Below, piece by piece: positions 59,146-64,000 of a stretch of DNA of 64,000 bases (positions are counted from its first letter, which is position 1; every line of letters starts with the position of its first letter). Under the pieces are notes generated by a model that saw only the letters and a list, made by a program, of their open reading frames with translations, did no database searches and was not told where the DNA came from. The DNA is from Chloroflexota bacterium (GTDB lineage: Bacteria; Chloroflexota; Anaerolineae; Aggregatilineales; J027). The stretch is taken from the NCBI GenBank assembly GCA_024434115.1, contig QMIT01000003.1:345282-409281 (forward strand). The letters are read 5' to 3'. The translations under genes and the position numbers were made by a program.

Positions 59146-59781
59146 ATGTTAACGATTGAGGACGCAGACATCATTCAAGGGCTTCGACGCGGCGACGAAA
59201 GCGTCTTTGCATCCCTGTTTGATGGCTATCAAAACTCACTGCTCCGCTTGGCATTGATGTATGCCACTGACCAGCGACTTGCCGAAGAAATTGTCCAAGA
59301 GACATGGCTGGCAGTCTTAAAAGGTATACATCGCTTTGAGGGTCGTTCGGCGCTCAAAACATGGATATACAGTATCCTCATCAATCGAGCCAAAACCGTC
59401 GCCCAACGCGAAGGCCGTTACAATAATCTGACACTATCCCTTGATGAGCAGGCCGAATCGAATGAGCCGTCTGTGCCGGAAGACCGTTTTCACCCGGACG
59501 ACGATCACCCCTATCCGCATCATTGGCTGAACGGCCCATCAGACTGGGGCATCCTCCCCGAAGACAAGTTACTCTCGGATGAGACCCAAAAGGTGGTTTT
59601 AGCGGCGATTGACGGCCTATCGCCAAATCAGCGCGAAGTCATTACCCTGCGTGATATTGAAATGCTGTCGTCCGAAGAAGCCTGTAACATCTTAGGGATC
59701 AGTGAGTCTAATCAGCGGGTTTTGCTGCATCGCGCACGGGCCAAAGTACGGCAGGCATTGGAAGAATATTTGGAGCGATAA
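59146..59781 (+). CDS. ECF-type RNA polymerase sigma factor
   Basis: 211 residues. Region 2: FDGYQNSLLRLALMYATDQR, LAEEIVQETWLAVLKGIHRF and TWIYSILINRAKT; region 4: GLSPNQREVITLRDIEMLSS, EEACNILGISESNQRVLLHR, ARAKVRQALEEYL. A 40-residue acidic, His/Pro-rich linker joins the two. It is coupled to a zinc-finger anti-sigma gene 11 nt downstream and possibly under the two-component pair upstream. Confidence 0.94.
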   Translation: MLTIEDADIIQGLRRGDESVFASLFDGYQNSLLRLALMYATDQRLAEEIVQETWLAVLKGIHRFEGRSALKTWIYSILINRAKTVAQREGRYNNLTLSLDEQAESNEPSVPEDRFHPDDDHPYPHHWLNGPSDWGILPEDKLLSDETQKVVLAAIDGLSPNQREVITLRDIEMLSSEEACNILGISESNQRVLLHRARAKVRQALEEYLER

Positions 59782-59792
59782 GACGGGCAACT

Positions 59793-60065
59793 ATGGACGA
59801 ACACGATTTAACCTGCCAAGAACTGGTAGAATTGGTTACAGATTATTTGGAAGGGGCATTGCCTGAAACGCAGTTCAAGCGTTTTGAGCAACACCTCTCC
59901 GGATGTCATGATTGTCATCATTATTTCGACCAGATACGGTTTACCATCCGTCTGGTGGGTCGGCTTTCCGAATCACACCTGAGTTCTGGGGCAAAGGATG
60001 AGCTGCTGACCCTGTTCCGGGATTGGAAAAAAGAACTGCCTGAGCAAGAAGAACCGGAATCCTAA
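59793..60065 (+). CDS. Zinc-finger anti-sigma factor (soluble)
   Basis: 90 residues. CQELVELVTDYLEGALPETQ, then FEQHLSGCHDC, give the Hx3Cx2C anti-sigma zinc motif with an upstream Cys. The rest is a short amphipathic helix and an acidic tail without a membrane span, so the factor is cytosolic. It is expected to bind the sigma factor encoded just upstream. Confidence 0.92.
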   Translation: MDEHDLTCQELVELVTDYLEGALPETQFKRFEQHLSGCHDCHHYFDQIRFTIRLVGRLSESHLSSGAKDELLTLFRDWKKELPEQEEPES

Positions 60066-60095: not shown

Positions 60096-60124
60096 TTGAC
60101 AGAAAAAATGGACTGCGTTATCTT
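60096..60124 (+). promoter_or_regulatory. Consensus promoter of the lys leader
   Basis: Perfect TTGACA, 17-nt spacer, TATCTT. Transcription would begin near 60131, giving a leader of about 380 nt before lysW. Confidence 0.75.
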
Positions 60125-60163
60125 TTTGCCCACTTACAAAGTATCAACGAGCAATTAATCAAC

Positions 60164-60217
60164 ATGACCATTTCATCTGTGACTTTGAAAAAAGGCAAAA
60201 AACCAAACCGCACCTAA
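60164..60217 (+). CDS. Leader peptide 1 of the lys operon attenuator
   Basis: A 17-residue frame, MTISSVTLKKGKKPNRT, with AAA AAA GGC AAA AAA and one Arg codon. Its stop lies inside a terminator-like hairpin (60194-60240), the standard layout for ribosome-mediated attenuation. The SD is weak. It shares the pattern KKxKKxNxR with leader 2. Inferred from sequence only. Confidence 0.5.
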   Translation: MTISSVTLKKGKKPNRT

Positions 60218-60240
60218 CTGGGTGGTTTTTGTGTTTTGCC
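60194..60240 (+). terminator. Terminator-like hairpin 1 in lys leader
   Basis: CACC and GGTG form the core with flanking AAA/TTT pairs, one bulge and one mismatch; GGCAAAA and TTTTGCC close it outside. The 3' arm runs into TTTTTGTGTTTT. It overlaps the Lys codons of leader 1, so ribosome position would change folding. Confidence 0.5.
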
Positions 60241-60253
60241 AACAAGGGCACAG

Positions 60254-60304
60254 CCAAAAAACAGAAATGAATGCCACCCAATGCGGTGGTTTTTTGTTTT
60301 TTGG
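60254..60304 (+). terminator. Terminator-like hairpin 2 in lys leader
   Basis: CCACC (60274-60278) and GGTGG (60285-60289) with a 6-nt loop, followed by TTTTTTGTTTTTT; an outer CCAAAAAACA/TGTTTTTTGG pairing extends it. A short Lys-rich frame (60229-60270) ends just before it. Confidence 0.6.
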
Positions 60305-60329
60305 GGTCATGGGTAACAGGGAAATCAGC

Positions 60330-60410
60330 ATGTTTTTTATAGACAGCATCAGCAAAAAAGCGAAAAAAACGAACACCCGCTGGCGGCGATTAGCCCGACA
60401 GTGCGCTTGA
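60330..60410 (+). CDS. Leader peptide 2 of the lys operon attenuator
   Basis: A 26-residue frame from ATG 60330 with an SD-like AGGGA 7-8 nt upstream. It carries SKKAKKTNTRWRRLARQ: four Lys and four Arg codons in 15 positions, far above chance, and stops 27 nt before a strong terminator. The KKxKKxNxR core repeats leader 1, so the two look like duplicated control units. This is a Lys/Arg-sensing attenuator by inference from the genes downstream. Confidence 0.7.
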   Translation: MFFIDSISKKAKKTNTRWRRLARQCA

Positions 60411-60437
60411 TGCTGGATTGAGTGAAATCAACCACCG

Positions 60438-60480
60438 CGCCCTCTCTGGAAAGTCGCCAGAGGGGGCGTTTTTGTTTCTT
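60438..60480 (+). terminator. Attenuator terminator directly before lysW
   Basis: CGCCCTCTCTGG (60438-60449) pairs with CCAGAGGGGGCG (60457-60468): 12 pairs with one G-U, a 7-nt loop, then TTTTTGTTTCTT. It sits between leader 2 and lysW, where a terminator makes sense only as an attenuator. Confidence 0.88.
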
Positions 60481-60513
60481 AGCCAAGTATTTAATCAATA
60501 GGAGCGTTTCAAA

Positions 60514-60690
60514 ATGAGCAATAACAATGTCGAATGTCTGGAATGTGGTGCAGATGTACGAGTGCCCAACAATGTGATGCAGGGCGAAATTTTGAAGTGT
60601 GGGGACTGTGGCATTGAGTTAGAAGTCACTGAACTAAACCCCCTGACCATTGACCTCGCGCCGATGGAAATGGAGGACTGGGGCGAATGA
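60514..60690 (+). CDS. lysW: Amino-group carrier protein LysW
   Basis: 58 residues, too short for most gene callers. Zinc-ribbon Cys pairs CLECG and CGDCG, an acidic body and the obligatory C-terminal EDWGE, whose terminal Glu carries the amino-acid intermediate. SD AGGAG is 9 nt upstream of the ATG. The stop overlaps the lysX start (ATGA). It carries alpha-aminoadipate, and in some organisms glutamate, through lysine or ornithine synthesis. Confidence 0.97.
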
Positions 60691-61550
60691 GCGCCAGAGT
60701 CGGAATTTTGTGCAGTCGCGTTCGCATCGAAGAAAAGCTGTTATTCACGGCCTTTGAGGAATTGGACATTACACCCGTCCGGTTGGATGAACGCGAGATG
60801 ATCGCACGGGTTGGCGAATTCGCCCCAGAAGTGGATGTTGTGTTGGAACGCAGCATTAGCACCTCGGCGGGATTGGTCGCAGCCCAATTGTTGGAGGCGG
60901 CCCATATCCCGGTCATCAACAGCTATGCCACCGCCAGCACCTGCGCCGATAAGATTCGTACCACCATCGCCCTCGCCCAACAAGGTGTACCGCAGCCGAT
61001 TACCGAAGTTGCCATGAGCGCCGAATCCGCCCTCGCGGCGATTGAGCAGATGGGGTATCCGGTTGTCCTCAAACCTGCAATTGGCTCATGGGGGCGCTTG
61101 CTGGCACGGGTCAATGATCGGGACGCCGCCGAAGCCATCCTTGAACATAAGGAAACGCTCGGAGGGGTCGGTCATCAGATTTATTACATTCAAGAATATA
61201 TCGAAAAGCCCGCCCGTGACATCCGCGCATTTGTCATCGGCACGGAAACCATCTGCGCCATTTATCGCAGTTCGCCACACTGGATTACCAACACGGCACG
61301 CGGCGGCAAGGCCAGCAACTGCCCCATCACGGATGATATTGCCGAAATTTGCCAGAACGCAACGTTGGCGGTCAGCGGCGGACAGGGTGGCATCTTGGCG
61401 ATTGATTTGCTGGAAGACCCCGAACGTGGCTTGCTGGTCTGCGAGGTCAACCACACGATGGAATTTCGCAACAGCATTGATACAACAGGGGTCAATATCC
61501 CGTTGCGTATGGCCCAGTTTGTACTGAACAGTGTCGAGGTGGTGCGATGA
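60687..61550 (+). CDS. lysX: LysW-aminoadipate ligase
   Basis: 287 residues, ATP-grasp fold. [58 protein letters not shown] followed by CP, and the metal/C-terminal [18 protein letters not shown] match Thermus LysX. It joins the amino group of alpha-aminoadipate to the C-terminus of LysW. Whether it also accepts glutamate (ArgX activity) cannot be read from sequence with certainty. ATGA overlaps at both ends. Confidence 0.95.
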
Positions 61551-62593
61551 GTCGGTTGCAAGTCGGCATTGTAGGGGCATCGGGCTATACAGGCGGGGAA
61601 TTGTTACGGTTGCTCAGTCAGCACCCACAAGTAGAGGTTATGCAGGTGACGGCGGGGCGCAACGTGGGCAAGTTTGTCCACAACGTCCATCCCCATTTGC
61701 GCGGGCAATTGAATCTGCAATTTATCGCGGAGGAGGCTCTGCAACCCTGCGACGTATTATTCCTTGCCTTGCCACACGGCCAAGCCCAACAATCCATCGA
61801 ACACTACGCCACCCTCGCCCCACGTATAATTGACCTCAGCGCCGATTTCCGCCTCCACAACCCCGCCGATTACGCCACCACCTATGCCAATGACCATTCT
61901 GCACCCGCGTGGTTAGAGCGTTTTGTCTATGGTCTGCCGGAAATTAACCGCCAAGCCTTGATCGGCGCAAATTACGCCAGTGGGGTTGGCTGCAACGCGA
62001 CGGCAACCACATTGGCATTGTGGGCATTGGTAAAAGCCGGGATTTTGAACGCCGACCAACCGATTTTTGCCGATATTAAGGTGGGCAGCAGTGAGGCTGG
62101 CAGCACACCTACCCCCGCCAGCCATCACCCGGCCCGCAGCGGCATCGTGCGCCCCTTCCAACTGACCGGACATCGGCATGAGGCCGAAGTGTGTCAAGCC
62201 CTACGCGATTGTGGGGACTTTGATGTGCGGATGGCGGTGACGAGTGTTGAAATGGTGCGCGGGGTGGCAGTAGCGGTGCATGTCACTCTCCCTACCGGAC
62301 TACGCGAACGGGATTTGTGGCAGGCCTATCGCGGCGCATGGAAGGGTGAGCCATTTGTCCGTATCGTGCATGAACAGGACGGCCTACATCGTCACCCTGA
62401 GCCGCGTTTGTTGGCAGGCACGAATTATGCCGATGTCGGGTGGGAATATGACCCCGCCACCGGACGCACGGTACTGCTGGCGGCGATTGACAATCTAGGT
62501 AAGGGCGCGGCGGGAAGTGCCGTGCAGTGCATGAATTTGATGTGTGGATTTGACGAAACAACCGCATTGACCTTTGGGGGGATTTATCCATGA
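61547..62593 (+). CDS. lysY: LysW-aminoadipyl/glutamyl-phosphate reductase
   Basis: 348 residues, ArgC-like. [20 protein letters not shown] (NADPH loop), [23 protein letters not shown], the catalytic Cys in [13 protein letters not shown], and [20 protein letters not shown] with HRHEAEV. It reduces the LysW-bound acyl phosphate to the aldehyde. Its overlap with lysX and lysZ (ATGA) places it in the LysW route rather than acetylated arginine synthesis. Confidence 0.93.
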
Positions 62594-63408
62594 CCTATGT
62601 ATTGAAAATTGGGGGCGGTGCTGGGGTTGACCATCACGCCGTCCTCCGAAATTTAGCTGAACGCATTCAAACTGGTGAACGCTGGGTGTTGGTACATGGC
62701 ACAAGCGCCGCCGCCAACGAATTAGCCGCCCGCTTGGGGGTTGAGGTGCGTACCATCACCAACCCCGGCGGGCATGTCAGCCGCTACACGGATGCCCAAA
62801 TGATCGGCATTTATGGGATGGCAGCCGCCTCGGTAAACCAACACCTGTGTGCTGAATTATCGGGCTATGGGGTCCGGGTGGTCGGCTTAACTGGCCCAAC
62901 CGTCATCAGTGCCCAACGCAAGCAGGCCATCCGCGCTATCCAAAATGGACGGCCTGTGGTCATTCGGGATGATTTTTCGGGCCGTATCACAGGCATTGAC
63001 CACGATTTGCTTGAATCTTTATTGGATGCAGGCTACACCCCGGTGATCGCACCGTTGGCAATTGGCGAAGCAGGTGAATCATTGAACGTGGATGGAGATT
63101 TAATCGCCGCCACCGCTGCCCGTGCGCTTAATGCTGACCTGCTGATGATTTTAAGCAACGTCCCCGGCTTGCTGCGTGATGTGAATGACCCTACCTCGGT
63201 GATTGAACATTTCGCCTTGCATGAGATTGAGCGTTATGAAAATTTCGCGGTGGGTCGCATGAAGAAAAAATTATTGGCAGCGCGGGAAGCGACTATCGAG
63301 CAGGTTATTTTAGCCGATTCACGACTGGAAAATCCGATTGACGCGGCGATGGCTGGCTCTGGCACACATATTTGGCGGGAGGAGCAGCATGTTGGACACC
63401 ACGCTTGA
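62590..63408 (+). CDS. lysZ: LysW-aminoadipate/glutamate kinase
   Basis: 272 residues, amino-acid kinase (ArgB-like) fold. YVLKIGGGAGVDHHAVLRNL, LVHGTSAAANELAARLG, NVDGDLIAATAARALNADLL, LSNVPGLLRDVND and FAVGRMKKKLLAAREA are the family landmarks. It phosphorylates the side-chain carboxylate of the LysW-bound substrate. Its 3' end overlaps lysJ by 20 nt. Confidence 0.94.
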   Translation: MTYVLKIGGGAGVDHHAVLRNLAERIQTGERWVLVHGTSAAANELAARLGVEVRTITNPGGHVSRYTDAQMIGIYGMAAASVNQHLCAELSGYGVRVVGLTGPTVISAQRKQAIRAIQNGRPVVIRDDFSGRITGIDHDLLESLLDAGYTPVIAPLAIGEAGESLNVDGDLIAATAARALNADLLMILSNVPGLLRDVNDPTSVIEHFALHEIERYENFAVGRMKKKLLAAREATIEQVILADSRLENPIDAAMAGSGTHIWREEQHVGHHA

Positions 63409-64000
63409 TACCGTTGCCCTCGAACAGAGCCACACCAGCGGTGTCTACATGAAGCGCGACCTGCAAATTGTGCGCGGCGAAGGGGCTTATCTATACGATG
63501 CGACAGGCCGACGTTACCTAGATTGCGTCGGAGGACAGGGAACGGCGAATTTAGGCCATGCCCACCCCGCGATTGTCGCCGCTATCCAGCAGCAGGCCGC
63601 TGAACTCATTTCCTGCCCGGAACTTTTTCATAATCCTGTGCGTGCCCATTATCAAGCCGCTTTGTGTGAGGCTGCTGGCATGAATCGTGTCTTTCTTTGC
63701 AATAGCGGAGCCGAATCAGTTGAGGCGGCTATCAAATTTGCGCGGGCCAGCACCGGACGGACAAACATTATCTCGACCATGCGCGGGTTTCATGGGCGCA
63801 CGTTTGGTGCCCTCAGCGTGACATGGAACAAATCCTACCGCGAACCTGTTGAACCACTCGTGCCGGGGGTCAATTTTGTGCCGTTCAATAATATCGAGCG
63901 CTTGCAGACTGCGCTGAATGACTCGGTAGCAGCGGTAATTGTTGAAGTTGTGCAGGGCGAAGGCGGGGTCTATCCAGCCGAACAAGGGTATTTGCAGGCC
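63389..64000 (+). CDS. lysJ: LysW-aminoadipate semialdehyde aminotransferase, 3' end cut by window edge
   Basis: 204 residues are visible from ATG 63389 (SD GGAGGAG 4 nt upstream, inside lysZ). Class III aminotransferase (ArgD-like): GAYLYDATGRRYLDCVGGQG, NLGHAHPAIVAAI, VFLCNSGAESVEAAIKFARA (PLP phosphate-binding), GFHGRTFGALSVTWN and VVQGEGGVYPA. It turns the bound semialdehyde into LysW-lysine or LysW-ornithine. LysK, which releases the product, is not in the window. Confidence 0.95.
   Translation, partial: MLDTTLDTVALEQSHTSGVYMKRDLQIVRGEGAYLYDATGRRYLDCVGGQGTANLGHAHPAIVAAIQQQAAELISCPELFHNPVRAHYQAALCEAAGMNRVFLCNSGAESVEAAIKFARASTGRTNIISTMRGFHGRTFGALSVTWNKSYREPVEPLVPGVNFVPFNNIERLQTALNDSVAAVIVEVVQGEGGVYPAEQGYLQA

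What the first reader, a model, noticed from the sequence alone, without database searches (positions are those of the whole stretch)
60096..60513. Tandem Lys/Arg-codon attenuator controlling a LysW operon
Seen: a consensus promoter, then two short frames with the shared pattern KKxKKxNxR (leader 1 at 60164-60217, leader 2 at 60330-60410), terminator-like hairpins at 60194-60240, 60254-60304 and 60438-60480, then lysW. A perfect terminator directly before a co-directional biosynthetic operon has no purpose unless it is conditional. Known: ribosome-mediated attenuation uses leader peptides rich in the codons of the operon's product, and I recall lysine-responsive attenuation reported for the Thermus lys cluster (not verified here). 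Inferred: stalling at Lys or Arg codons disrupts the terminator. Leader 2 has both KKAKK and R-x-RR-xx-R, so it may sense both end products, which suits a bifunctional Lys/Arg LysW pathway. A two- or three-stage attenuator would be unusual.
Basis: partly seen in the sequence, partly recalled or inferred. Interest (0 to 1): 0.85.

Follow-up and report, generated by a model that had tools for sequence, protein, structure and literature searches.

The report
Double lysine attenuator before lysW operon
Upstream of a ten-gene lysine-making operon, this Chloroflexota bacterium carries two consecutive tiny lysine-rich genes, each followed by a transcription stop signal with a predicted alternative fold, so the operon should be read only when ribosomes run short of lysine at both checkpoints; the arrangement is conserved across many related bacteria.

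Summary
Promoter, two KKxKK leader ORFs (60164-60217, 60330-60410) and hairpins lie where stated. Of 117 same-order genomes with lysW, 88 have a KKxKK short ORF in the 450 nt before lysW; shuffles give 0.08%, the antisense strand none. Leader plus terminator occurs in 108 genomes (40 of 42 genera), tandem in up to 52 (27 genera). Region 2:region 3 antiterminators covary. Modelled ribosomes at Lys codons favour the antiterminator; at the stop codon they do not.

(2) Arg sensing is not supported: the leader-2 Arg codons are the antiterminator strand, the same RNA element overlaps the stop codon in related genera, and an Arg stall would bury it. (3) The operon is a complete aminoadipate/LysW lysine operon and the genome has a separate argJ, so a bifunctional pathway is not indicated.

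Best reading: two ribosome-mediated lysine attenuators in series. The mechanism is known; tandem, same-amino-acid, order-wide conservation appears new. A distant family of the phylum has tandem T-boxes before lysW instead. No expression data exist.

The parts
60096..60124 (+). sigma-70-type promoter, TTGACA-17 nt-TATCTT
   Evidence: the same boxes stand in four congeners; enrichment upstream of first leaders
60164..60217 (+). leader peptide 1, MTISSVTLKKGKKPNRT*; Lys codons at 60188, 60191, 60197, 60200
   Evidence: conserved in relatives
60219..60226 (+). stage 1 region 2, UGGGUGGU, antiterminator strand
   Evidence: 8 bp with 60273-60280; covaries in relatives
60273..60302 (+). stage 1 intrinsic terminator (3:4) with T-run; region 3 is 60273-60280
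60330..60410 (+). leader peptide 2, MFFIDSISKKAKKTNTRWRRLARQCA*; Lys codons at 60354, 60357, 60363, 60366
   Evidence: conserved in relatives
60344..60351 (+). stage 2 protector 5' strand CAGCAUCA, pairs with 60408-60415
   Evidence: equivalent helix covaries in relatives
60408..60415 (+). stage 2 protector 3' strand UGAUGCUG
60380..60401 (+). stage 2 small conserved hairpin CUGGCGGC...GCCCGACAG that holds region 2; contains the Trp-Arg-Arg codons
   Evidence: consensus fold and compensatory changes
60380..60387 (+). stage 2 region 2, CUGGCGGC (GGCGAU element), antiterminator strand
60453..60460 (+). stage 2 antiterminator target GUCGCCAG, in the loop and 3' arm of the terminator
60437..60479 (+). 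stage 2 intrinsic terminator, 13-bp stem 60437-60469, then T-rich tail
60514..60690 (+). lysW, amino-group carrier protein; Shine-Dalgarno AGGAG 60500-60504
   Evidence: TIGR01206 over cut-off
60687..61550 (+). lysX
   Evidence: TIGR02144 over cut-off
61547..62593 (+). lysY (argC-like reductase)
   Evidence: TIGR01850
62590..63408 (+). lysZ, [LysW]-aminoadipate kinase
   Evidence: NF010659 over cut-off
63389..64000 (+). lysJ aminotransferase, start inferred, runs off the window; followed in the genome by homocitrate synthase, homoaconitase large and small subunits, homoisocitrate dehydrogenase and lysK

Best explanation
The 60096-60513 region is a leader that carries two complete ribosome-mediated transcription attenuators in series, both tuned to lysine. 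RNA polymerase starts near 60130 (inferred). A ribosome translates leader 1 behind it. If Lys-tRNA is scarce, the ribosome stalls on KKGKK, keeps the Lys-codon strand out of the 1:2 protector helix, and leaves region 2 (UGGGUGGU) free to pair with region 3 (GCCACCCA), so the terminator at 60273-60302 cannot form. If lysine is plentiful, the ribosome reaches the stop codon and masks region 2, and transcription ends. Polymerases that pass meet the same test again at leader 2: stalling on KKAKK breaks the CAGCAUCA:UGAUGCUG protector and frees CUGGCGGC to pair with GUCGCCAG of the second, stronger terminator (60437-60479). The ten-gene aminoadipate/LysW lysine operon is transcribed only if both terminators are passed, so leakage multiplies down and the response to lysine starvation should be steeper than with one. 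Shown here: the parts, their conservation, the covariation and the modelled switch. Inferred: translation of the leaders, stalling, termination and the series logic.
For: Conserved Lys-rich leaders next to lysW: 88 of 117 genomes have KKxKK ORFs against 0.08% in shuffles and none antisense. The peptides keep KKxKK while the middle residue, flanks and Lys codon (528 AAG, 108 AAA) vary. Leader plus intrinsic terminator in 108 of 117 genomes, 40 of 42 genera; two, by either of two automated rules, in 52 genomes, 27 genera, five families. Antiterminator 2:3: single-stage or stage 1 groups are 93% and 88% paired against shuffle maxima of 91% and 83% and slid maxima of 43% and 49%, with 16 and 30 two-sided changes against shuffle maxima of 11 and 16. 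Stage 2 group: 91% paired, covariation score reached by 1 of 500 shuffles. Protector helix: 0 of 500 shuffles reach the paired percentage. Modelled over 153 leaders: antiterminator probability 0.87 with the ribosome on Lys codons, 0.04 at the stop; terminator probability 0.58 against 0.95, no leader reversed by more than 0.2; shuffling the spacer removes the effect (0.63 to 0.92). Window itself. The leaders stay with lysW when the upstream genes differ: outside the window the ECF/anti-sigma pair is found only in three congeners. No Lys leader where lysW follows an argH-like frame.
Against: No transcript, ribosome or lysine-response data. Shine-Dalgarno-like sites precede only 60 of 153 leaders against 108 of 117 lysW genes (shuffled expectation 22%), so initiation may be weak. 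At equilibrium the strong stage 2 terminators win even with a Lys stall (groups D and E), so stage 2 must rely on co-transcriptional kinetics; its antiterminator also contacts the loop and 3' arm of the terminator rather than the 5' arm. In the window the no-ribosome fold of stage 1 favours the antiterminator over the terminator, unlike the classical protector, and congeners differ on this. Part of the low antiterminator value at the stop codon is by construction, because the footprint removes region 2. Footprint size is assumed (10 nt beyond the A-site codon). The covariation counts cells, not independent events.
Confidence: 0.87

Rival explanations
1. Lys and Arg co-sensing: leader 2 stalls at Arg as well as Lys codons, so the operon answers to both amino acids.
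For: Leader 2 of the window has RWRRLAR, and 95 of 153 leaders contain at least one Arg.
Against: Arg is 6.1% of leader residues and is not positionally conserved. The codons that give WRR are the GCGGCGAU antiterminator element, which overlaps the stop codon in other genera and covaries with the terminator loop. An Arg stall covers region 2 and gives antiterminator probability 0. The operon is a full lysine operon with a separate argJ in the genome.
Confidence: 0.05
2. Only one of the two stages is a working lysine switch; the other is a decayed or constitutive partial terminator, or acts mainly as a pause site.
For: Many relatives have a single stage, for example 32 of 33 genomes of genus g31. 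Stage 2 terminators are so strong that equilibrium modelling shows little Lys effect for groups D and E.
Against: Both stages keep Lys-rich peptides and covarying antiterminators in tandem genomes of up to 27 genera; a dead stage should lose the peptide.
Confidence: 0.12
3. The element senses something other than Lys-tRNA charging: for instance intrinsic ribosome arrest or sliding on A-rich Lys runs, an arrest peptide, or a lysine-binding RNA.
For: The window's own leaders use AAA runs, which can slow ribosomes by themselves (general knowledge).
Against: Most relatives use AAG (528 of 636 Lys codons), so the amino acid and not the A-run is kept. Peptide residues outside KKxKK are not conserved, unlike arrest peptides. 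No Rfam riboswitch or T-box match in the leader.
Confidence: 0.06
4. Ordinary intergenic terminators and chance short ORFs between an anti-sigma gene and an unrelated operon.
For: KKxKK triplet patterns in the whole genome are as common as the reversed control (43 and 31 against 42 and 34), so the codon pattern alone is not special.
Against: Position, conservation and covariation upstream of lysW in 40 genera, and retention when the upstream genes differ.
Confidence: 0.01

Closest known systems
trp/his/leu-type ribosome-mediated transcription attenuators (proteobacteria, actinobacteria; e.g. PMC1262725)
   Same: Short ORF rich in codons of the end product, 1:2 protector, 2:3 antiterminator, 3:4 intrinsic terminator, biosynthetic operon directly downstream.
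   Different: Two complete units in series for the same amino acid; lysine through the aminoadipate/LysW pathway; Chloroflexota; stage 2 antiterminator pairs with the terminator loop and 3' arm.
Thermus thermophilus lysine cluster attenuator (Tsubouchi et al. 2005, recalled from memory; not found in the paper library)
   Same: As recalled: leader-peptide attenuation of a LysW-pathway lysine operon.
   Different: As recalled a single leader; other phylum; no sequence comparison could be made here.
Salmonella mgtCBR tandem attenuators (PMC3641672)
   Same: Two short ORFs in one leader, each tied to its own attenuator.
   Different: There the two units answer to different signals (ATP and proline); here both leaders are Lys-rich. 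Different genes and sequences.
Tandem same-ligand riboswitches and T-boxes (reviewed in PMC12452182)
   Same: Two independent switches for one signal in series, expected to give a pseudo-cooperative, digital response.
   Different: Those bind ligand or tRNA directly; here translation of a leader peptide does the sensing.

Membership tests
Ribosome-mediated (trp-type) transcription attenuator | Short leader ORF rich in codons of the regulated amino acid, conserved | tested here: met
Ribosome-mediated (trp-type) transcription attenuator | Intrinsic terminator between leader ORF and first structural gene | tested here: met
Ribosome-mediated (trp-type) transcription attenuator | Mutually exclusive antiterminator supported by covariation | tested here: met
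Ribosome-mediated (trp-type) transcription attenuator | 1:2 protector that gives termination when no ribosome is present | tested here: inconclusive
   Helix better than shuffles or non-cognate in groups B, C and E, covarying in E, not seen as that outer helix in group D; the window's stage 1 no-ribosome fold favours the antiterminator
Ribosome-mediated (trp-type) transcription attenuator | Leader is translated and amino-acid starvation raises read-through | not testable with these tools
   needs ribosome profiling, Term-seq or reporters
Thermus lysine-cluster attenuator | Leader-peptide attenuation of a LysW-type lysine operon | tested here: inconclusive
   Operon type matches; regulation not shown; the Thermus leader could not be fetched or read
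mgtCBR-type tandem attenuators | Two leader ORFs, each with its own attenuator | tested here: met
mgtCBR-type tandem attenuators | The two units carry codons or motifs for different signals | tested here: not met
   Both leaders are Lys-rich
T-box leader (RF00230) | Match to the T-box covariance model | tested here: not met
   none for the window or attenuated relatives; present in another family of the phylum
Lysine riboswitch (RF00168) | Match to the Rfam model | tested here: not met

The most novel reading that the evidence does not exclude
A same-signal double checkpoint: two autonomous lysine attenuators in series, kept by selection across at least an order of Anaerolineae because the product of two terminators gives a steep, low-leak response. 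The phylum would have reached the same design a second time with tandem T-boxes in front of the same operon in another family.
Probability: 0.5. Interest if true: 0.72.

Novelty: new variant of a known kind. Interest (0 to 1): 0.6.

Why it matters
Textbook attenuators sense one amino acid with one leader peptide. A pair of them in series for the same amino acid, conserved over about 27 genera, would be a natural cascade whose input-output curve can be predicted and measured, and it raises the question of why lysine through the LysW carrier needs such tight shut-off. It also supplies a lysine-responsive control element in Chloroflexota outside any present Rfam family, and a case in which the same operon is governed by peptide attenuators in one lineage and T-boxes in another.

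Tried and rejected
Three-stage attenuator: rejected, because the first hairpin is the 1:2 protector of stage 1. Arg sensing: rejected on codon position, RNA conservation and the stall model. Lysine riboswitch and T-box in the window: no Rfam match. A genome-wide regulon of KKxKK leaders: the pattern is no commoner than its reversed control, and none of the 15 short-frame sites among the 30 loci examined looked like a leader (the other 44 places were not read). The first LysW finder used a wrong spacing and was rerun. The first pair count for the group D 1:2 hairpin hit the wrong copy of TCTGG and was redone. The first leader-terminator pairing dropped stage 2 of the window and of one congener and was redone with a second rule, so the tandem count is quoted as a union. 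A family tree of single against tandem was not made because most loci hold only the start of lysX. The Thermus attenuation paper was not in the library.

Full report
What was checked. The window lies in G000:C14, a genome whose nearest named records are Anaerolineae/Chloroflexi MAGs. Between an anti-sigma gene ending at 60065 and lysW at 60514 there are: a TTGACA-17-TATCTT promoter; leader 1 (60164-60217, MTISSVTLKKGKKPNRT); a hairpin at 60194-60240; a terminator at 60273-60302; leader 2 (60330-60410, MFFIDSISKKAKKTNTRWRRLARQCA); and a 13-bp terminator at 60437-60479. The 384-nt leader folds better than all 100 shuffles (z -4.2).

The operon. NCBIfam assigns lysW, lysX, argC/lysY, lysZ and lysJ. 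Just beyond the window follow homocitrate synthase over its cut-off, homoaconitase-type large and small subunits, a homoisocitrate dehydrogenase-type protein, and lysK over its cut-off, with overlapping or adjoining reading frames. This is a complete aminoadipate/LysW lysine operon. A separate argJ lies on another contig, so arginine is probably made by the acetyl cycle.

Conservation. LysX was used to find the operon in 154 genomes of the order, and upstream DNA was read from 117 genomes with lysW. KKxKK ORFs ending within 15 residues of the cluster occur in the 450 nt upstream of lysW in 88 genomes. Dinucleotide shuffles give 0.08% and the antisense strand none. Leaders average 23.5% Lys; 107 of 153 have exactly four Lys; AAG outnumbers AAA 528 to 108. 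The middle residue and flanks vary freely, so what is kept is the run of Lys codons. Leader plus terminator is found in 108 of 117 genomes and 40 of 42 genera; tandem leaders are found by one or other automated rule in 52 genomes, 27 genera and five families. In the window's genus, four of the five genomes carry the anti-sigma gene upstream and one does not, and no other genus examined has it, yet the leaders remain. Elsewhere in the class, tandem Lys-rich leaders also precede lysW in one genome (L199), whereas in f9 genomes lysW follows an argH-like frame and no such leader is present.

Anatomy. In stage 1 region 2 (UGGGUGGU, 60219-60226) pairs with region 3 (GCCACCCA, 60273-60280), the 5' arm and loop of the terminator. 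The equivalent helix has been rewritten many times in relatives, for example GUGACGAGUGGU:GCCACUCGUCAC (L009), GUUAGUUCGGGU:GCCCGGACUAAC (L069), CCUUUCGGGC:GCCCGAAAGG (L111) and GUAUGGGC:GCCCAUAC (L086). Column counts on structure-blind MAFFT alignments give 93% and 88% paired cells, with 16 and 30 two-sided changes against shuffle maxima of 11 and 16. The hairpin at 60194-60240 pairs the Lys-codon strand with the strand after the stop codon: it is the protector, not a terminator. Stage 2 has an outer protector (CAGCAUCA 60344-60351 with UGAUGCUG 60408-60415), a conserved small hairpin 60380-60401, and an antiterminator CUGGCGGC:GUCGCCAG that engages the loop and 3' arm of the terminator. Its relatives covary (91% paired, 1 of 500 shuffles as high), as does the protector (0 of 500 for cells paired), and the consensus fold recovers the small hairpin, including GC to GU to AU changes that follow a UGG-to-UAG codon change.

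Switch model. With a ribosome footprint reaching 10 nt beyond the A-site codon, antiterminator probability in a transcript ending at region 3 averages 0.87 for Lys stalls and 0.04 for a ribosome at the stop codon over 153 leaders. Full-length terminator probability is 0.58 against 0.95; 78 leaders differ by more than 0.2 in that direction and none in the other. Shuffling the spacer between leader and terminator removes the effect (0.63 observed, 0.92 shuffled). In the window, Lys stalls give 0.95-0.96 (stage 1) and 0.72-0.80 (stage 2); stalls at any leader-2 Arg codon give 0 because the ribosome covers region 2. The low value at the stop codon is partly by construction. For stage 2 the finished terminator is so stable that the switch must be kinetic.

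Arginine. The Trp-Arg-Arg codons of leader 2 are the GCGGCGAU element. In L009, L012, L016, L054, L058, L059 and L063 the leader stops at a UAG whose last base is the first base of that element, so the element is essentially untranslated but still conserved and still pairs with the terminator loop. Arg is therefore best read as a by-product of RNA structure.

What it works like and what it is. It meets the sequence-testable definition of a trp-type attenuator twice over; translation and regulation are untested. Tandem leader-ORF attenuators are known in mgtCBR, where the two sense different signals (PMC3641672). Tandem riboswitches for one ligand are expected to be pseudo-cooperative (PMC12452182). 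Leader-peptide attenuation of the Thermus lysine cluster is recalled from memory and could not be read here. No paper on this element in Chloroflexota was found, but the library is open-access only. No Rfam family reaches its gathering score.

A parallel. In three genomes of family f35 of the phylum, two T-boxes lie in series upstream of lysW (E 1e-17 to 1e-13, slightly below the gathering score). The proximal ones read AAA at what I take to be the specifier position of the Rfam alignment; the distal one of L196 reads GAA or, one base on, AAG. This suggests that a double checkpoint on this operon evolved twice.

Uncertainties. There are no expression data. Shine-Dalgarno-like signals are sparse before leaders. 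The no-ribosome state of stage 1 is unclear in the window's genus. Counts are by genome and not corrected for relatedness, and genus g31 alone supplies 33 genomes.

Noticed in passing
L196 2601-2878 and 3054-3376 (- strand); L201 2599-2876 and 3051-3372; L203 2598-2880 and 3118-3460: Two T-box leaders in series upstream of lysW in family f35 of the same phylum. The proximal specifier reads AAA (Lys); the distal one of L196 is ambiguous (GAA or AAG one base on). The two copies share a near-identical middle stretch, as after a duplication.
   Followed up: partly
L199 (family f11, same class), about 420 to 100 nt upstream of lysW: Tandem Lys-rich leaders MRFVCVAKQQKKAKKPGTLRSG... and ...RKKKCKKAKPSPLRGSG..., so the double arrangement reaches beyond the window's order.
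   Followed up: partly
L205, L206, L209, L211, L212, L215, L218, L222 (family f9): lysW follows an argH-like reading frame and has no Lys leader; this may be an arginine-type (ArgW) context and serves as a negative control.
   Followed up: no
L018, L020, L022 (family f8): Single-stage relatives with a reduced Lys motif (KTGGKK, KKGGK, KKGVK) and a 2:3 helix such as ACUGGGAGG:CCUUCCAGU; genus g17 of the same family shows no leader at all.
   Followed up: partly
window 59146-60065: ECF sigma factor and zinc-finger anti-sigma gene end about 30 nt before the lysW promoter, with no clear terminator between; read-through from them would also meet both attenuators. The gene pair is found in only part of the genus.
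   Followed up: partly
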